Source: Lachnospiraceae bacterium
Lineage (GTDB): Bacteria; Bacillota; Clostridia; Lachnospirales; Lachnospiraceae
Reading direction: 5' to 3'
NCBI GenBank assembly: GCA_910575005.1
Contig: CAJTCL010000012.1
Span: forward strand, 1 to 64,000
DNA length: 64,000 nucleotides
Positions within the stretch are counted from its first letter, which is position 1. Each line of letters opens with the position of its first letter. The notes beneath the pieces are model-generated. The model was not told the DNA's origin and did no database searches. It saw only the letters and a list, made by a program, of their open reading frames with translations. A program made the translations under genes and the position numbers. Of this stretch, positions 19,088-26,656 are shown piece after piece.

Positions 19088-20422
19088 ATGAATATTATTG
19101 GAATTATCGCTGAATACAACCCCTTCCATCGGGGACATGCCTATCAAATTGAACAATTAAAAAAAATCTGCCATGCAGATTATGTGATCATTGCCATGAG
19201 TGGAAATTTTGTACAACGGGGAGCCCCCGCCCTGATGGATAAATACAGCCGCACAAAGATGGCCTTGCACTGTGGTGCTGATCTGATTCTGGAACTTCCC
19301 ACTCTCTTTGCATCTGCCAGCGCAGAAACCTTTGCCCGCGGCGGCGTCTCTCTGTTAAACAACACCGGAATTGTCACTCATCTTGGTTTTGGCGCTGAAA
19401 CTGACAATATCCATCTGCTGTCAGAACTTGCAAACCTCCTCTGTTTACAACCAGATCCTTATCGAGAAGCACTGCACAAAGAATTGAAGATGGGCCATTC
19501 CTTTCCTGCTGCCCGCGCCAATGCTCTGGAAAGTTATCTGTTGTCCCATTCCTTGGCACTTTCTGCAAATACAGATTCACATTTCAACTGCTCTGACAAC
19601 AATTTACAAGAAATCTTAGCCAGCCCTAACAATATCCTGGCTCTGGAATACTTAAAAGCTCTGAACACCACCAAATCCATTTTAATTCCAGTTCCTATTT
19701 TGCGGCAAGGCCGAAGCTACCATGATACCACAATTGCAGAAGATTTCTGTTCGGCCACTGCCATCCGCACCTATTTAAAAAGGGAACCTTGTTGGAGAAA
19801 TGCTCAATACGACCTGGGCAGCAATAATCATATATCTTCTTCCTGTGATTGTGCTGACTCACTGAAAACTGCCATGCCTTTGGATTCTTATAAAATTTTA
19901 AGAGATTATACTCATCCATTTCTATTTGAAGATGACTTTTCCACATTGCTCCACTATAAACTGCTCTTCAATGACGCAGATCATCTTGCAGCCTGGGCAG
20001 ACAGCTCTCCCGCCTTGGCTGACCGCCTGCTCCATGAACGAGAATATTTTACGAATTGGAGCAAATTTTGCCAACGCATAAAAACAAAAAATATCACTTA
20101 CACCAGAATAAGCCGTCTTTTTCTGCATATGTTGTTAGATATCAAGCAGTCGGACTATCATACATTCCCTGTGCCCTCTTATCTGCGTATTTTAGGATTT
20201 CGTCAAACGGCTAGCCCGCTGCTCTCTGCACTAAAATCACACAGTCGGCTTCCAATTATCACGCACCCGAAAAAGGCACAGACACTGCTCTCAAAACAAG
20301 AACAGAAACTTTGGGACATGGATCTGCGTGCTGCTGACTTGTATCGTCTGGGACTGACTGGCAAAGGTGACTATAGTATGAAAAGAGAATACCGCCAACA
20401 GATGATTATCAGCCCACCATAA
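19088..20422 (+). CDS. tmcAL: tRNA(Met) cytidine acetate ligase TmcAL
   Basis: 444 residues. The N-terminus GIIAEYNPFHRGHAYQIEQL carries the nucleotidyltransferase HxGH motif, and AMSGNFVQRGAPALMDKYSR is diagnostic for the family formerly called DUF795/YlbM. The enzyme uses acetate and ATP to form acetyl-AMP and makes N4-acetylcytidine at the wobble base of elongator tRNA-Met. GAAGGAG stands 5 nt before ATG. It is the only core gene on the plus strand in the first 50 kb. It uses free acetate, the product of the nearby ackA, but no operon links them. Confidence 0.93.
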   Translation: MNIIGIIAEYNPFHRGHAYQIEQLKKICHADYVIIAMSGNFVQRGAPALMDKYSRTKMALHCGADLILELPTLFASASAETFARGGVSLLNNTGIVTHLGFGAETDNIHLLSELANLLCLQPDPYREALHKELKMGHSFPAARANALESYLLSHSLALSANTDSHFNCSDNNLQEILASPNNILALEYLKALNTTKSILIPVPILRQGRSYHDTTIAEDFCSATAIRTYLKREPCWRNAQYDLGSNNHISSSCDCADSLKTAMPLDSYKILRDYTHPFLFEDDFSTLLHYKLLFNDADHLAAWADSSPALADRLLHEREYFTNWSKFCQRIKTKNITYTRISRLFLHMLLDIKQSDYHTFPVPSYLRILGFRQTASPLLSALKSHSRLPIITHPKKAQTLLSKQEQKLWDMDLRAADLYRLGLTGKGDYSMKREYRQQMIISPP

Positions 20423-20425
20423 AAA

Positions 20426-20462
20426 GCACTCCTCAGAGTATTTCTCTCTGAGGAGCGTTTTC
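20426..20462 (+). terminator. Terminator after tmcAL
   Basis: GCACTCCTCAGAG pairs with CTCTGAGGAGCG and is followed by TTTTCTGTC. Confidence 0.85.
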
Positions 20463-20600
20463 TGTCTTATCCCATATCAGAATAATATCTTCTCTTTCTG
20501 ATATACTTTCTATGGATTCTAGAAGGCGGATCTGATCTTGCCAGCAGATAATCTGCGTTTTTAGCAAGAATACCCATAACATGCTTACATAATTTTATAT

Positions 20601-23117
20601 TCACTTTAACTTTTCTAAATCCACCCAAAGCGCCGGCCGAATCCCATAACTTTTCGTAGTCGAAACACCACTGTAATCTATATTGCCGTTCTTAAAAACA
20701 CGCGCCGCCTGTTTCTTATTTTTTCTGACCGTTCTCAGTAACCATTGATCTATGGTATCATCGCCTACATAATTTATATCGAGATAAATCGTTCCATCTG
20801 TCTTTCTGTCTTTGGATTTATCAAAATATTTTTCAGCTTCTTTTACACTGAGTAAAAATATATGATCTTTCGTAGTCTCTCCTTTTTTCGTTCCAAATTT
20901 GCGGTCACGAGGGTTTTTCACTTTCACGGAAAGTATCTTATTTTGTTGATCCTCGCTAAATGCCTCCTTAAAAAAAGTTTCATTGAGCCATTTTCGGATC
21001 GAAGACTTCTTCCACTCAACAGCCTTATCTTTTGTATGATATGGCTGCTTGTCCAGACAGTATTGACTAATCAGAAGAACTTTATCTTTTTTCTTATCAA
21101 GTACCCGCCATTCAATTCCTTCTTTCCCATTATCCAAATTATTATCCTGTTCATACCTTCCAAATGACACAGAATCCCCTATTTTCGCCGAAAGAATCAT
21201 CTTATAGCGTTCCACATTCATCCGTGCTTCCTCTTTTTGGTCTGCAATCTTGAATTTCTCCGCACTATCCTTATAGTCCTTGATCTCTTCCAACAGCCAA
21301 CAGGCCTCCCAGTAGTCTTCTTCTTCCATAGCTTTCATCGCCTGCTGATATTTCTGTTCTGGCACAGCTACCTTATAATAAAAAATTGTGCCTGCAAGCG
21401 CAACTGCAACAAACGCTGCTATGATAATCCTGCAAATTTTGCGATTCCTCTTCTGCTTCTGAGCTGCAAGCTCCCTCATCCTTTTCCAACGTTCCCGCTC
21501 TGCTCGATCTTCTTCCTGTTTGCGTTTGATCTCCTCAATTTCATTCTCACAGTATAATTTCTTCTCACTAACATCTTTCCAATCTGGAATTTCAATAAAA
21601 ATCTTTATGGCATCTTCTATCATCATAAGCGGCTGCTGATCATAACAACTATACCCATTTTTTGTTATATACGCATGGTATTCTTCCATTATTTCACAGC
21701 CTTCCTGATATCGCTCCTCCTTGTAAGCCTGTTCTGCTTTTGCCAGGCACTGCTGCGCTCTTGTGTCTGCATCAGCATAACCGGAGATATCCTGAAATAT
21801 CTGTGCTATTTCCCTGTATTCACTTTCCTTTGAAGCCTGCTTTTCCCTATCATTTGCCTTCTGATAAATCTTTTTCCTTCGGGCATTCTCCTTTCGTTCT
21901 AGAATCTGAGACAGATACCCCTCTACGGTCTCCTTTAGCTGCGGATCTGCAAATCTCAAAATTTTCTGATAGTGATTACAGTTTTTAAAGGACTTATCAC
22001 AATTTGCCAAATCCTCCTGATGGGAAACATGCAGCTCTGCCATCAGCTTTCCCAGATAAGCCTGACCATTCTCTGGATCCATATCCAGCACTTTTTCACA
22101 ATATTCATCGGCGCTCGCCCAGTCTCTATCCTCCAAAAATAAAAACACACGCTTTAACAGCGGTGTAATCGCTGTCGTACCTGTGGCTGGTAAAACCGCC
22201 TGCGGTTGCTGCTCTCTTTTGTCAACCTCCAAGATCTTCTTGATTCCCCGTATTAAATCTTGCAAAAATCCAAGCTGTGACATATCCTGTGCCTGCAAAT
22301 GTGAAAACTCTTCTGGCAGATCATAGGGATCCATATCCTTATAAGCAGGAATCAGGATCTTATCTGCCCCGCCCTGAATCAAAGACAGGAATCTTGACCA
22401 TTCATTTTTTACCCATACTGCATTAAAATATTCCCGCTTTGTGCCCAGTACCACCATAACCTTTGCCGAGTTAAGCGCCGCAAAAATATATGGCTCATAG
22501 GCAGAGCCCAACTTATTTTCTAAAGTAATTCTGGCAAAAAAAACTTTAAGCCCCTCTTCGGTCAACTCGTGATAGAGATCATTAGCAAGAACAGAATCCG
22601 GTGTTCTATGTCCAAGCTGGTCATTCTCTTTATAACAGATAAATACATCAAAAGGCTCTTCCTGTTGCGAAATATTTAAAATTCCTCTTTGAATCTCATC
22701 AATCGTCCTGGCCTCTGCTTCATACACACTGCGCTGATAGCTGTCTGCATACTGCAGCGCCGCCTTATAGTTTTCATCTGCAAATACAGAAGTATATTGG
22801 GCACGGTTTACCGTAGGCACGCGTCTGTGAGTGGCAGGATCCTCTACATATTCAATTCCGTAACGCCCCAGCACCAATGACCAATAAGCCTCTGCATCCG
22901 TCGTATCTTCATTGAGAATCTGTTCATAGATCGCCATTGCCTTGTCAAATTCATTATTTCTCCGAAAATGATTTGCCCGATCATAGAGATTCTTTTTCTT
23001 ATCATCGTCCAGTCTGGGCAGCGTCTGTTTGGTGCCGCAATACTCACATTCTGCCACTGTCATTCCAGGCTGAATCGACAATGTACCTCCGCACATTTTG
23101 CACTTAAACATCAGCAT
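20601..23117 (-). CDS. TIR-domain protein with zinc ribbon, TPR, transmembrane helix and C-terminal DUF6273-like domain
   Basis: 838 residues from MLMFKCKMCGGTLS (GGGG 8 nt upstream). Domain order: zinc ribbon (C6, C9, C24, C27); TPR-like helices 40-145; TIR domain 155-295 (FDVFICYKENDQLGHRTPDS), with E208 in GSAYEPYIFAAL at the place of the catalytic glutamate of NAD-cleaving TIRs; further TPR-like and coiled-coil repeats 320-560; one membrane helix 562-581 after a basic stretch; then 648-838, a DUF6273-like domain (WRVLDKKKDKVLLISQYCLD, SSIRKWLNETFF, YGIRPALWVD) on the far side of the membrane. It follows an SPFH protein gene on the same strand. A TIR NADase effector coupled to a membrane or surface sensor is the likely reading, as an immune or stress device. 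The NADase activity and role are inferred. Confidence 0.85.
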   Translation of the reverse strand: MLMFKCKMCGGTLSIQPGMTVAECEYCGTKQTLPRLDDDKKKNLYDRANHFRRNNEFDKAMAIYEQILNEDTTDAEAYWSLVLGRYGIEYVEDPATHRRVPTVNRAQYTSVFADENYKAALQYADSYQRSVYEAEARTIDEIQRGILNISQQEEPFDVFICYKENDQLGHRTPDSVLANDLYHELTEEGLKVFFARITLENKLGSAYEPYIFAALNSAKVMVVLGTKREYFNAVWVKNEWSRFLSLIQGGADKILIPAYKDMDPYDLPEEFSHLQAQDMSQLGFLQDLIRGIKKILEVDKREQQPQAVLPATGTTAITPLLKRVFLFLEDRDWASADEYCEKVLDMDPENGQAYLGKLMAELHVSHQEDLANCDKSFKNCNHYQKILRFADPQLKETVEGYLSQILERKENARRKKIYQKANDREKQASKESEYREIAQIFQDISGYADADTRAQQCLAKAEQAYKEERYQEGCEIMEEYHAYITKNGYSCYDQQPLMMIEDAIKIFIEIPDWKDVSEKKLYCENEIEEIKRKQEEDRAERERWKRMRELAAQKQKRNRKICRIIIAAFVAVALAGTIFYYKVAVPEQKYQQAMKAMEEEDYWEACWLLEEIKDYKDSAEKFKIADQKEEARMNVERYKMILSAKIGDSVSFGRYEQDNNLDNGKEGIEWRVLDKKKDKVLLISQYCLDKQPYHTKDKAVEWKKSSIRKWLNETFFKEAFSEDQQNKILSVKVKNPRDRKFGTKKGETTKDHIFLLSVKEAEKYFDKSKDRKTDGTIYLDINYVGDDTIDQWLLRTVRKNKKQAARVFKNGNIDYSGVSTTKSYGIRPALWVDLEKLK

Positions 23118-23158
23118 ACTTCTTTCCCCTTTTCCTTTTACCTTTCTTTTATCTTCTA

Positions 23159-23191
23159 GGGCGTGTCTGAAAACCGCTTTCAAACACGCCC
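23159..23191. repeat. GCGTGTCTGAAA palindrome, copy 1
   Basis: GGGCGTGTCTGAAA and TTTCAAACACGCCC pair around a short loop between the SPFH and TIR genes. A second copy of the same palindrome lies at 31836-31871. It may attenuate transcription or stabilise the upstream message. Confidence 0.6.
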
Positions 23192-23225
23192 CAATTCACA
23201 CTACTCCATATTAAAAAATATTATA

Positions 23226-24395
23226 CTAGTCAACTTTATGACCACACTGGGAACAAAACTTTGCACTGCTAGGAAGTTGTGCCCCACATTCTGGACATTG
23301 CGGAATGATCGACGAACCACATTCGACACAGAATTTTGCATTTTCTGGAACTGGTTTCCCGCAATTAGCACAGAAAACTGCTGATTGGACAGGTTGTGCA
23401 GACACCTGTGCTGTAGGATTAATAGCATTGCCCATCATATTTCCAACCATGCCGCCCACTGCACCGCCAACGCCTGCCATTGTTCCAAGCCCCAGCCCCA
23501 AATTGGTAAACTGGCCTGCCGCCTGATTCTGTGCTACCTCTGAAGCCACATCAAATCCTCGCTCCTGCTGGTATGTATAACCTTCCTGAGCCCGCTTTGT
23601 GGCCATTGCCTGAGATTCAATCACCATCTGCTGTGCCTGCGTCTGCTGGTCAATAATCCCCACCTGCTGACGCAGCTTGGCCTCCGCCACCTCAGAATAC
23701 TGGCGAAAATGTAATTCCTTGAACCTTTCATACTGCGGTTCTCCATCTGGCTTCAAAATTGCTGTCACAAAAAAGCGTTCCAGTGAAACTCCATAGTCTG
23801 CAAAATCCCCAGCGAGCATTCCCTTTAACTGCTCAGAAAATTCTGTCAAATTTTCATCAATCTCAAAAATACTGACAGCATTCTCTTTCATAAACCTTGC
23901 AATATAAGTCTTCACCCGTGTCATCAAAAAGGCTCGAAAATGATTTATTAACTGTTGCTGTCCTAATGTATGCTCTGTTCCCACCAACCTCAACAAAAGC
24001 TTTTGGGAATCCTCCACACGCAAACTCATTTCCCCGCACGCGCCAATTGAAATGGGAAAGCCGTAAGTTGGCTCTATGTACTGAACCTTGCTGTCTGTCC
24101 CCCATTTCAGAGCCAGTTGCTCAGTTTTATTGATAAAATAAACCTCACAATGAAATGGCGATTGATCCCCTGTCAGGCGGTTTAAGAGCCTGCCCAACAA
24201 TGGAATATTCTGACTGTCCAGCGTATATCTGCCTGCTGGAAATAAATCTAACGCCTGCCCATCCCGAAAAAAGATCGCCTCCTGAGATTCATGTACAATC
24301 AATTGAGAAAACATATTAAAATCTTCCCTGGGATGCTTCCATATAAAAGTACTGTTATCTCCCTCATATTTAATAATATCTGCTATCTGTGCCAT
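23226..24395 (-). CDS. SPFH-domain protein with two C-terminal zinc ribbons (YdjI-like)
   Basis: 389 residues. Residues 1-230 form the SPFH (stomatin/prohibitin/flotillin-like, 'virion core') domain of YdjI type; 235-300 is an Ala/Gln-rich helix; 300-325 is a Gly-rich hydrophobic hinge (GLGTMAGVGGAVGGMVGNMM). Two zinc ribbons follow: C342/C345/C356/C359 and C367/C370/C381/C384. There is no signal peptide. In Bacillus, YdjI works with PspA-type proteins in membrane-stress response. Here the partner is a TIR protein that also starts with a zinc ribbon. SPFH proteins oligomerise on membranes, so this one could recruit or sense for the TIR effector. That link is inferred from adjacency. Confidence 0.88.
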   Translation of the reverse strand: MAQIADIIKYEGDNSTFIWKHPREDFNMFSQLIVHESQEAIFFRDGQALDLFPAGRYTLDSQNIPLLGRLLNRLTGDQSPFHCEVYFINKTEQLALKWGTDSKVQYIEPTYGFPISIGACGEMSLRVEDSQKLLLRLVGTEHTLGQQQLINHFRAFLMTRVKTYIARFMKENAVSIFEIDENLTEFSEQLKGMLAGDFADYGVSLERFFVTAILKPDGEPQYERFKELHFRQYSEVAEAKLRQQVGIIDQQTQAQQMVIESQAMATKRAQEGYTYQQERGFDVASEVAQNQAAGQFTNLGLGLGTMAGVGGAVGGMVGNMMGNAINPTAQVSAQPVQSAVFCANCGKPVPENAKFCVECGSSIIPQCPECGAQLPSSAKFCSQCGHKVD

Positions 24396-24432: not shown

Positions 24433-25611
24433 TTAGTGATGGAACAAACGAATCCCTGTAAAGCACATTGCCATATGATATTTATTGCAAGTGGCAATTA
24501 CATGGTCATCCCGAATAGAACCACCTGGTTCTGCGACATAGACCACACCGCTTTTATGAGCACGCTCAATATTGTCCCCAAAGGGGAAGAACGCATCAGA
24601 ACCAAGAGCCACATCTGTCATCTGATCGAGCCAAGCACGCTTCTCCTCCCTGGTAAATACTTCTGGCTTTACTTTAAATATCTTCTCCCAGGCACCATCC
24701 GCCAATACATCCATATAATCTTCTCCAATATATAGATCTATCGAGTTATCACGGTCTGCCCGTCCAATGCCATCCACAAACTGCAGGTTCAATACCTTGG
24801 GCGCCTGACGCAAAAACCAGTTGTCCGCTTTCTGACCTGCAAGACGGGTACAATGGATCCTTGACTGCTGTCCAGCACCAATACCGATTGCCTGACCGCC
24901 CTTTGCATAACAAACTGAATTAGACTGCGTATATTTGAGAGTGATCATGGCAATTGCCAAATCAATTTTAGCAGATTCTGGAATTTGCTGATTTTCTGTG
25001 ACTACATTGCCAAAGAAATCGTTATCAATCTTTAACTCATTTCTGCCCTGCTCAAAGGTAATGCCAAACACTTCCTTGCGTTCCACTGGACTTGGCACAA
25101 AGTTGGGATCAATCTCAATCACATTATAATTACCTTTCTTCTTGGCCTTTAAGATCTCTAAAGCCTCAGGTTCATAGCCTGGAGCAATCACGCCATCCGA
25201 TACTTCACGTTTGATAATCTTTGCCGTTGCCACATCGCAGATATCAGACAGAGCGATAAAATCTCCAAACGAAGACATTCTGTCCGCTCCTCTGGCTCTT
25301 GCATATGCGTTGGCAAGCGGCGTAAACTCCAAATCCATATCATCTACCCAGTAAATCTTCTTCTCCACTTCGGTCATTGGCAGCCCCACTGCCGCTCCAG
25401 CTGGAGAAACATGTTTAAAAGAAGTGGCCGCTGCAAGCCCAGTAGCACCCTTTAATTCCTTTACAAGCTGCCAGCCATTGAATGCATCTAAAAAATTGAT
25501 ATAACCTGGTTTTCCATTCAACACTTTAATGGGAAGCTCCCCACTTTCCATATAGATTCTGGAAGGTTTCTGATTTGGGTTACATCCATATTTCAATTCT
25601 AATTCCTGCAT
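24433..25611 (-). CDS. purH: AICAR formyltransferase, stand-alone
   Basis: 391 residues from MQELELKYGCNPNQKPSRIY. It matches only the transformylase half of bifunctional PurH (AICARFT): SFKHVSPAGAAVGLP, RARGADRMSSFGDFIALSD, the TQSNSVCYAKGGQAIGIGAG loop and GSDAFFPFGDNIERAHKSGV. It transfers the formyl group from 10-formyl-tetrahydrofolate to AICAR in purine synthesis. The cyclohydrolase half is supplied by the gene directly upstream. Translation starts behind leader cassette copy 2, with the same CTTGGTGCAAATT-ATG context as acpP. In-frame TTG and GTG codons could add MVQI. Confidence 0.95.
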   Translation of the reverse strand: MQELELKYGCNPNQKPSRIYMESGELPIKVLNGKPGYINFLDAFNGWQLVKELKGATGLAAATSFKHVSPAGAAVGLPMTEVEKKIYWVDDMDLEFTPLANAYARARGADRMSSFGDFIALSDICDVATAKIIKREVSDGVIAPGYEPEALEILKAKKKGNYNVIEIDPNFVPSPVERKEVFGITFEQGRNELKIDNDFFGNVVTENQQIPESAKIDLAIAMITLKYTQSNSVCYAKGGQAIGIGAGQQSRIHCTRLAGQKADNWFLRQAPKVLNLQFVDGIGRADRDNSIDLYIGEDYMDVLADGAWEKIFKVKPEVFTREEKRAWLDQMTDVALGSDAFFPFGDNIERAHKSGVVYVAEPGGSIRDDHVIATCNKYHMAMCFTGIRLFHH

Positions 25612-25732
25612 AATTTGCACCAAGCCTCAAGCGAAAATGCTTGCATTTTCATTTGAGACGCAAACACAAAGGGTGAAAGATGCGTGTTTGCATTTTATCC
25701 TTTCTTCTTTTTTTCTTTCACCCTTTACCTCC
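25612..25732 (-). repeat. 5'-leader cassette, copy 2 (upstream of purH)
   Basis: Over 90% identical by eye to the copy before acpP. The arms AAGGGTGAAAGA and TCTTTCACCCTT are perfectly complementary here, and the second hairpin (ATGCAAGCATTTTC region) is intact. It lies between the IMP cyclohydrolase stop (25736) and the purH start. Confidence 0.8.
25649..25693 (-). CDS. Putative 14-codon leader ORF in front of purH
   Basis: MQTRIFHPLCLRLK then TGA, preceded by AGAAAGGA 4-5 nt upstream. It is the same frame, length and stop as the copies before acpP and tpiA. Confidence 0.4.
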   Translation of the reverse strand: MQTRIFHPLCLRLK

Positions 25733-25735
25733 ATC

Positions 25736-26449
25736 TCACTGATTCTTGTTGACAATCCTTGTCTGATATTTTCCAGTCTCAATTTCAATATATCTCACAA
25801 ACAGTGATACTTTATTCTCCTGATTCAAACTGTCCCAGATCTTCTCTGTAAAAGTATCAATGTCTCCATCCATCTCCACCAACTTTGGTTCACCTTCAAA
25901 ACTAGGCAATGGATTGCCATCCCCCATATAAGTATGAATAAAATGACCTTCACCATTCCGTGGATTTTCATAGGCAAATGTATAACGGTTACAGGATTCT
26001 GGATTTCCATGATTGCTCTTTAGAATGGACAAAGCATAATTATAGGAACCATTTTCCAAATGCATAATTCCAGAAATTCTTGGCGTATAGTTGGGAGCAT
26101 CTGGCTCAAATTCACGGGTACGCAGCGCCTGCTCAAACGTCTGCTGCTTGTCCATCAATTCATAAATCGTATCTGTCTGATCTCCATTTGTAACAATCGT
26201 CTTATTTCCCAGCACACGTACTGGGGCATAAATAATCAAACTAGGATCACTTAACTTGGAAGGATCAAATGCCTGCGTACGAATTCCTTCCCCTTCTTCC
26301 ACAAAAATACGGTTCCTGCTGTTTTCACTTCTTCCCATAATAAAATAAGCAGTCACCGCATATTTCCCATCCTCAGATTTTCCAATTACAATTCCTCTTC
26401 CAGGATAAGAATTTCCTTTTAATTCTGTTTCCAATGATACACTATTCAC
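25736..26449 (-). CDS. purO: IMP cyclohydrolase, PurO-type
   Basis: 237 residues starting at GTG 26449, which has AAAGGAGG 7 nt upstream. The frame is open for another 20 codons, but these come from a MITE-like repeat and should not be translated. The sequence (ETELKGNSYPGRGIVIGKSE, YFIMGRSENSRNRIF) fits the PF07826 family first known as archaeal PurO, which closes FAICAR to IMP. It is unrelated to the N-terminal domain of bacterial PurH. Next to the stand-alone transformylase it completes purine synthesis. Confidence 0.9.
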   Translation of the reverse strand: MNSVSLETELKGNSYPGRGIVIGKSEDGKYAVTAYFIMGRSENSRNRIFVEEGEGIRTQAFDPSKLSDPSLIIYAPVRVLGNKTIVTNGDQTDTIYELMDKQQTFEQALRTREFEPDAPNYTPRISGIMHLENGSYNYALSILKSNHGNPESCNRYTFAYENPRNGEGHFIHTYMGDGNPLPSFEGEPKLVEMDGDIDTFTEKIWDSLNQENKVSLFVRYIEIETGKYQTRIVNKNQ

Positions 26450-26480
26450 ACCATTTCCTCCTTTGTTATAATTTAAAGAT

Positions 26481-26656
26481 AACGATTCAGACCCCCAAGA
26501 CGCAGACATGCCAATTAAGCTGTCATACGACTCTGATAAGACTTTTGTCTATGCAAGGCTGTACCTAACACTCTGTAAAAAAATTGATGGAATTTTATTA
26601 TCCAAAACGCCACCGGCGTTTTGACGGCGGTGGCGTTCATGAACAGACCTTGAACT
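26481..26656. mobile_element. MITE-like element B with extra hairpins
   Basis: The left end AACGATTCAGACCCCC resembles element D (TAACTATTCAGACCCC). The core ATGCCAATTAAGCTGTCAT and GACTTTTGTCT match elements A and C. The right half carries AACGCC/GGCGTT and GAACGCC/GGCGTTC hairpins like those in the tpiA leader. The right boundary is uncertain. It fills the gap between cheV and the IMP cyclohydrolase gene. Confidence 0.4.

What the first reader, a model, noticed from the sequence alone, without database searches (positions are those of the whole stretch)
20601..24395. SPFH-zinc-ribbon protein coupled to a TIR-TPR-membrane protein: candidate undescribed immune or membrane-stress system
Two adjacent same-strand genes: a YdjI-like SPFH protein ending in two zinc ribbons, and an 838-aa TIR protein starting with a zinc ribbon. 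The TIR has a glutamate (E208) where NAD-cleaving TIRs have the catalytic residue. SPFH proteins assemble on membranes, and the TIR protein has its own transmembrane helix. Known TIR-based defences (Thoeris, TIR-CBASS, Pycsar, SPARTA) do not have this composition as far as I know. The inference is a membrane-associated sensor (SPFH) with an NADase effector.
Basis: partly seen in the sequence, partly recalled or inferred. Interest (0 to 1): 0.78.

Follow-up and report, generated by a model that had tools for sequence, protein, structure and literature searches.

The report
Modular membrane TIR immune-type operon
Side by side in this bacterium lie a membrane-scaffold gene and a gene for a membrane-spanning TIR protein; relatives in other gut bacteria carry the same pair, often with a third membrane gene and swappable toxin-like genes, which looks like an undescribed bacterial immune system.

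Summary
Both genes are real: an SPFH protein ending in two zinc ribbons (23226-24395, -) and an 838-aa zinc ribbon/TPR/TIR/one-helix/DUF6273 protein (20601-23117, -). The pairing is conserved: SPFH in at least 52 of 79 TIR loci, same strand 52 of 52; both genes in 10 of 11 strong-TIR genomes of 245 and 15 of 21 of 299. Corrections: the catalytic glutamate is E239, not E208 (both invariant, 73 of 73). Most relatives add a four-helix membrane gene (50 of 79 loci) and some a swappable gene slot: 14 of 30 slot genes are SIR2/AbiH-like, HEPN, RES, FRG or DUF4365, 7 of them above Pfam's cut-off. The TIR protein's tail models like a domain of a secreted IgA protease and varies among relatives. PspA is absent from 9 of 10 carrier genomes. 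Best reading: a patchy, membrane-anchored, receptor-like TIR conflict system with exchangeable tails and effectors, of which the window holds a stripped two-gene version. NAD cleavage, topology, trigger and defence are inferred, not shown; PADLOC did not show cargo enrichment.

The parts
20601..23117 (-). TIR gene, 838 aa: zinc ribbon - TPR - TIR - TPR/helical - one membrane helix - TPR - DUF6273
   Evidence: ORF; Pfam; model; relatives
23013..23117 (-). N-terminal zinc ribbon (residues 1-35; Cys 6/9/24/27, each 73 of 73)
22218..22658 (-). TIR domain (residues 154-300)
22401..22403 (-). E239, candidate catalytic glutamate in helix alpha-C (W235-x-x-N238-E239), 73 of 73
22494..22496 (-).
21381..21437 (-). 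membrane helix (residues 561-579), Lys/Arg-rich on the TIR side
   Evidence: hydropathy and charge only; low confidence in the model at 552-575
20619..21086 (-). DUF6273 (residues 678-833), predicted outside the membrane
23226..24395 (-). SPFH gene, 389 aa: Band_7_1 plus two C-terminal zinc ribbons
   Evidence: ORF; Pfam
23745..24341 (-). SPFH/Band_7_1 domain (residues 19-217)
23232..23381 (-). two zinc ribbons (residues 339-388)
20427..20457 (-). terminator-like hairpin with T run after the TIR gene
   Evidence: consensus scan only

Best explanation
The pair is a reduced member of an accessory, patchy conflict (immune-type) system of Clostridia, many of them gut bacteria, built as SPFH - four-helix membrane protein - [variable effector] - zinc ribbon/TPR/TIR membrane protein. 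The SPFH protein and, where present, the four-helix protein form a platform at the cytoplasmic membrane (inferred from their families). The TIR protein is anchored with its TIR inside and, in most relatives including this one, a C-terminal binding domain outside (DUF6273 here). A change at the cell surface or membrane is proposed to cluster the TIR proteins. Clustered TIRs would cleave NAD or make an NAD-derived signal through E239, stopping the infected or damaged cell, alone or together with a neighbouring NADase, RNase or nuclease. Shown: gene pairing, shared strand, third gene, variable cargo, variable tails, invariant active-site residues, TIR fold, absence of PspA. Inferred: topology, NADase activity, trigger, immune outcome.
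For: Pairing: SPFH in 52 of 79 loci (3 more show a partial SPFH at a contig edge), same strand 52 of 52; 41 of 53 loci with 4 kb or more upstream have it. Class sample: 10 of 11 strong-TIR genomes vs 8 of 234 others; family sample: 15 of 21 vs 3 of 278. Third gene in 50 of 79 loci and in 7 of the 11 strong-TIR class genomes; four N-terminal helices in its model. Cargo: of 30 slot genes, 14 are HEPN (6), SIR2/AbiH-like (4), DUF4365 (2), RES (1) or FRG (1); 7 exceed Pfam's cut-off, the rest are sub-threshold or by homology. Rarity: DUF4365 in 2 of 148 class genomes, one of them being a cargo gene of this system; SIR2_2 in 19 of 148. Active site invariant, TIR fold. Tails: DUF6273 in 34 of 61, RCC1-like 5, LRR 3; hydrophobic helix after the TIR in 57 of 73 (54 single, 3 double), TIR side more positive in 55 of 57. 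Fusion: in L092 and L093 the four-helix gene is fused to a TPR-DUF6273 tail without TIR. PspA absent in 9 of 10 carriers. Patchy: the other genome of the same genus in the family sample (G419) has neither gene at the cut-offs used.
Against: The window copy lacks the four-helix gene (no match in its genome) and any cargo, so it may be degenerate or work differently. TIR residues 1-320 are strongly conserved (mean column identity 70%), unusual for an arms-race gene. 12 of 53 well-covered TIR loci lack SPFH, and 6 of 21 TIR genomes of the family sample do. 16 of 73 TIR proteins show no membrane helix, among them two LRR tails and one MORN tail; 3 have two helices; in L061 almost nothing follows the helix: not all tails are outside. 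PADLOC does not show enrichment of cargo: 25 models matched among 30 cargo genes, 77 among 80 flanking control genes. 16 of 30 cargo genes are not of effector families. No copies in plasmid or phage collections. The same SPFH also sits in loci without a strong TIR. No functional data.
Confidence: 0.6

Rival explanations
1. Envelope-stress/membrane-repair system like the B. subtilis ydj operon: the SPFH protein positions a membrane-remodelling machine and the TIR is only an assembly module.
For: Band_7_1 SPFH with C-terminal zinc ribbons next to membrane protein genes resembles the ydj operon, where YdjI is needed to bring PspA to the membrane (abstract of PMC8581546; passages of PMC11237479 and PMC10936438). 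Strong sequence conservation.
Against: No PspA in 9 of 10 carrier genomes, the window's included; TIR active site fully kept; cargo of RNase/NADase/nuclease-type families; patchy distribution.
Confidence: 0.18
2. Toxin-antitoxin-like or stacked-toxin cassettes: TIR, RES, HEPN and SIR2 genes are toxins, and SPFH and the 4TM protein are immunity or stabilising partners.
For: RES and FRG genes among TIR genes in L098, HEPN/SIR2-type cargo, tandem TIR copies.
Against: The TIR-SPFH core is far more constant than the cargo; no antitoxin family was seen constantly linked among the neighbour clusters; TIR proteins carry varied tails.
Confidence: 0.11
3. Signalling adaptor without enzymatic activity: the TIR only mediates protein-protein contact, as in animal Toll-like receptors and MyD88.
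For: The only PDB sequence match of the TIR-only profile is a TLR15/TLR2 entry (7ylf, E 4.4e-6); VIA also aligns MyD88 and MAL TIRs.
Against: W235, N238, E239, Y207 and R242 invariant in 73 of 73; the aligned folds include SPARTA, AbTir and SARM1 TIRs.
Confidence: 0.11

Closest known systems
SpbK (B. subtilis TIR NADase against phage SPbeta)
   Same: TIR with an alpha-C N-E motif (SpbK N191-E192; here N238-E239); NADase activated by clustering on the phage protein YonE (passages of PMC12847820)
   Different: no SPFH, four-helix partner or surface-type tail appeared in the passages seen
SPARTA (TIR-APAZ/short Ago)
   Different: no APAZ or Ago in the window proteins or in the neighbour genes scanned
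Thoeris (ThsA/ThsB)
   Same: TIR plus, in a few relatives here, a SIR2-like gene next door
   Different: the SIR2-like gene is one of many cargo types and absent from the window; no PADLOC hit
B. subtilis ydj operon (PspA-SPFH envelope system)
   Same: SPFH with zinc ribbons next to membrane protein genes
   Different: TIR instead of PspA; PspA absent from 9 of 10 carrier genomes
Animal Toll-like receptors
   Same: layout idea: binding domain outside, one membrane helix, TIR inside; a few LRR tails
   Different: reverse domain order, lectin-like tail in the largest group, NADase-type residues invariant; two LRR-tailed members examined lack a predicted membrane helix; no common descent of the layout is claimed
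Kiwa (KwaA/KwaB)
   Same: recalled: a four-helix membrane protein plus a cytoplasmic partner in phage defence
   Different: no PDB match of the 4TM model at E <= 0.001; partners differ

Membership tests
TIR NADase | TIR fold | tested here: met
TIR NADase | catalytic Glu in helix alpha-C | tested here: met
   E239 in alpha-C 234-248 of the model, 73 of 73; equivalence taken from SpbK paper passages and a profile alignment to a TLR TIR, not from a residue-level superposition
TIR NADase | NAD cleavage on clustering | not testable with these tools
   needs biochemistry
Thoeris | ThsA partner (SIR2-SLOG or macro) of ThsB | tested here: not met
   the window partner is SPFH; no PADLOC model matches either protein at E <= 1
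SPARTA | APAZ domain and short Ago partner | tested here: not met
   no such Pfam domain in either window protein
CBASS with TIR effectors (TIR-STING, TIR-SAVED) | CD-NTase and cyclic-nucleotide sensor domain | tested here: not met
   absent from both proteins and the four flanking proteins scanned on Pfam
PspA/Ydj envelope-stress system | PspA in the genome | tested here: not met
   PF04012 in 1 of 10 carrier genomes, not in G000; the named control genomes rang in 9 of 14
PspA/Ydj envelope-stress system | SPFH (Band_7_1) with C-terminal zinc ribbons | tested here: met
   no direct alignment to YdjI was made
Transmembrane receptor with surface domain | single membrane helix between TIR and binding domain, binding domain outside | tested here: inconclusive
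   hydrophobic helix in 57 of 73 (54 single), 55 of 57 more positive on the TIR side; no topology experiment
Kiwa | KwaA/KwaB homology | tested here: inconclusive
   no PADLOC hit for the window proteins; 4TM model without PDB match at E <= 0.001; the 4TM protein itself was not scanned against PADLOC

The most novel reading that the evidence does not exclude
Clostridia of the gut carry true cell-surface immune receptors of Toll-like layout: a lectin-like or repeat domain outside, one membrane helix, and an NAD-cleaving TIR inside, held in an SPFH/four-helix membrane platform. Sensor tails are swapped by duplication of the TIR half, and intracellular effectors (SIR2, HEPN, RES, FRG, DUF4365) are swapped in a slot of the operon, so recognition and killing evolve as separate modules.
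Probability: 0.35. Interest if true: 0.92.

Novelty: new variant of a known kind. Interest (0 to 1): 0.75.

Why it matters
The best-known bacterial TIR immune proteins (recalled) sense from inside the cell. A widespread operon that places an NADase-type TIR under a surface-facing, variable binding domain, on an SPFH platform with a variable effector slot, would give bacteria a membrane-spanning receptor arm of immunity and a testable parallel to Toll-like receptors. It would also suggest a function for DUF6273 on TIR proteins, for an unnamed four-helix membrane family, and for an SPFH branch outside the Psp response.

Tried and rejected
E208 as catalytic residue: rejected; it sits in alpha-B of the model. 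Psp-type role: weakened. PADLOC as an enrichment test of cargo: tried, did not support enrichment. The 80 flanking control genes matched 77 models, the 25 shown having one member each; the call does not give the number of distinct members. The 30 cargo genes matched 25 models.

Special transfer of the TIR gene: L005, a near relative, shows 98-100% nucleotide identity over most of the TIR gene but 68-76% around the 3' end of SPFH; the whole locus is mosaic (68-100%), so nothing special is claimed. Mobile-element carriage: none in plasmids or phages; one viral-contig locus, L104, followed only by one Pfam scan. TIR tree: families are mixed, but support is modest and it is no proof of transfer. 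The four-helix protein: no Pfam family at or above cut-off, no PDB match at E <= 0.001. PDB sequence hits for SPFH were weak: Erlin-1, E 3e-4. Foldseek on the full TIR model led with helical-repeat proteins, 3 hits at E <= 0.001, and did not show 9qa6 among its first 50; the 9qa6 match comes from the VIA second look. DUF6273 placing by a jackhmmer script gave 28 hits after and 9 before the membrane helix; it probably drifted into TPRs and is not used for topology. Thoeris, Kiwa and Pycsar proteins were not among the 50 VIA rows; that shows nothing. The genome search scored only the best few first-look SPFH candidates of each genome, so some absences may be misses.

After the self-check I corrected the intergenic distance (108 bp), the count of unassigned cargo (7), the single/double-helix split and the organism labels, and lowered confidence slightly (0.62 to 0.60) because of the double-helix tails and the PADLOC control.
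Full report
What is there. Two ORFs on the - strand, 23226-24395 and 20601-23117, sit between an AICAR formyltransferase gene (24433-25623, same strand, 37 bp upstream of SPFH) and a convergent nucleotidyltransferase gene (19088-20422). The upstream protein is Band_7_1 (PF13421, E 5e-40) with two zinc ribbons. PADLOC gives 0 models for both at E <= 1. The window's genome (99.45% complete) has one copy of each; besides them the TIR query found only a DUF6273-region match elsewhere, and the SPFH query only a zinc-ribbon match.

Is the pair conserved? A scan of genome contigs with the TIR protein found 101 relatives; the best 80 were kept, giving 79 loci. The record titles name Clostridia or their families for nearly all; exceptions are an Erysipelotrichaceae bin (L065), a bin labelled planctomycete (L054) and records titled only Bacillota bacterium or bacterium (L018, L046). 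Clustering of neighbour ORFs gives an SPFH gene in 52 of 79 loci and a third gene ('4TM', median 233 aa) in 50 of 79; three more loci show a partial SPFH at the contig edge (L014, L040, L071). SPFH is on the TIR strand in 52 of 52; 43 have SPFH upstream of the nearest TIR and 9 downstream; 41 of 53 loci with 4 kb or more upstream have it and 12 do not. SPFH and 4TM are usually under 25 bp apart, and 4TM and TIR under 105 bp where no cargo lies between. The window's bare SPFH-TIR form recurs in L005 (near relative), L045 and L059. In 245 genomes drawn from the class, 13 have the TIR at E <= 1e-10, 11 of them strongly (E < 1e-150); 18 have this SPFH strongly (E < 1e-130). The overlap is 10 of the 11 (11 of 13 with the two weak TIR genomes), 9 of the 10 on one contig. 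The 4TM gene is in 16 of 245 at E <= 1e-5, among them 7 of the 11. In 299 genomes of the family the TIR (E <= 1e-50) is in 21, SPFH (E <= 1e-100) in 18, both in 15, of which 13 on one contig within 10 kb. Fisher p = 2.6e-12 and 5.7e-18, treating genomes as independent and with cut-offs chosen after seeing the scores. The other genome of the window's genus in that sample has neither gene. So the pair is real, linked and patchy.

Third gene and cargo. The 4TM protein has no Pfam family above cut-off. Its model has four N-terminal helices and a helical tail; hydropathy finds 2-4 membrane helices in 23 members; the tail has a near-invariant R-Y-x-D-P and ends in lysine; no PDB match reaches E <= 0.001. 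It gives no match in the window's genome. In L092 and L093 it is fused to a TPR-DUF6273 tail with no TIR, linking it to the same tail. Twenty-six genes lie on the same strand between core genes in the 79 loci; I added four from L098 and L099. Of these 30, 28 were scanned on Pfam; the other two, L038 and L047, are homologues of scanned ones. HEPN: L010 above cut-off, L009/L025/L034 below it, L060/L083 by homology to L034 and an R-N-P-L-I-H motif. SIR2/AbiH-like: L065 and L027 above cut-off, L043 below, L016 by homology. RES and FRG in L098, DUF4365 in L099 and L035, all above cut-off. That makes 14 of 30, 7 of them above cut-off. The remaining 16: DUF2971 (3), DUF1413 (2), zinc ribbon (2, weak), DUF4760 (1), HTH_17 (1), and 7 without a clear match, four of which are related to each other (L011, L014, L069, L098). 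A reverse-transcriptase gene also lies among the L098 TIR genes but is not counted. Base rates: SIR2_2 has 22 matches in 19 of 148 class genomes; DUF4365 is in 2 of 148, and one of the two (G039) is the L099 cargo gene itself. With the 24 genes scanned (two L098 genes outside the 30 included) and an assumed 2,500 genes per genome, two hits each have Poisson p of 1e-6 and 8e-9. The PADLOC comparison with 80 flanking genes does not show enrichment.

Context of the SPFH branch. The same SPFH occurs in 8 of 234 class genomes without a strong TIR. Loci of these carry other genes, for example ZnR-DUF6591 followed by a bacterial PH gene in L084, or a zinc-ribbon protein with hydrophobic stretches in L089; one, L090, has a gene with a weak match to the TIR profile that was not examined. 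PspA is missing in 9 of the 10 class genomes that carry both genes, so this is not simply the Ydj/Psp system.

Mechanism, with status. Shown by sequence: composition, linkage, active-site conservation, fold, variation of cargo and tails. Inferred: SPFH and 4TM form a membrane platform; the tail senses something outside; clustering activates TIR NAD cleavage; cargo adds a second effector. The window has a minimal version, SPFH plus a DUF6273-tailed TIR, ending in a terminator-like hairpin. No terminator-like site was found between the purine gene and SPFH, so read-through from the purine genes is possible.

What is in print. Searches of the open library for TIR+SPFH, DUF6273, YdjI/PspA/SPFH, TIR+transmembrane+NADase (15 of 99 papers listed), SPFH+phage defence and Kiwa listed no paper whose title or abstract start describes this pair. 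Only listings, abstracts and the passages named above were seen, no whole paper; subscription journals and most preprints are not covered. The conflict-system survey PMC7159879 (passages) mentions SPFH only in its reference list.

Noticed in passing
window 24433-26509; L005, L032, L046: The AICAR formyltransferase and IMP cyclohydrolase genes sit right beside SPFH in the window, L005 and L032 (gene clusters c9/c10), and downstream of the TIR in L046: a shared insertion site or a link to purine metabolism.
   Followed up: no
L098 940-17055: A genome of the window's family (G087) packs several TIR genes with RES, FRG and reverse-transcriptase genes in one stretch.
   Followed up: partly
L092 1-1278, L093 2557-4071: The four-helix protein is fused to a TPR-DUF6273 tail without TIR (L092 is cut by the contig end).
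   Followed up: partly
L084 7232-12261, L085 2519-7548: SPFH-4TM operon without a Pfam TIR, followed by a ZnR-DUF6591 protein and a bacterial PH-domain gene.
   Followed up: partly
L005 8525-10608 vs window 20423-20594: A 2-kb stretch downstream of the TIR gene present only in L005 (a DedA-like membrane gene and a glycosyltransferase-like gene, named by eye), within a mosaic of 68-100% identity.
   Followed up: partly
L081 6001-6966, L050 198-1163: TIR genes with an in-frame stop in the fetched sequence: pseudogenes or assembly errors.
   Followed up: no
L082 6001-7716: TIR protein whose tail looks by eye like an L,D-transpeptidase-type enzyme, which would be a surface domain.
   Followed up: no
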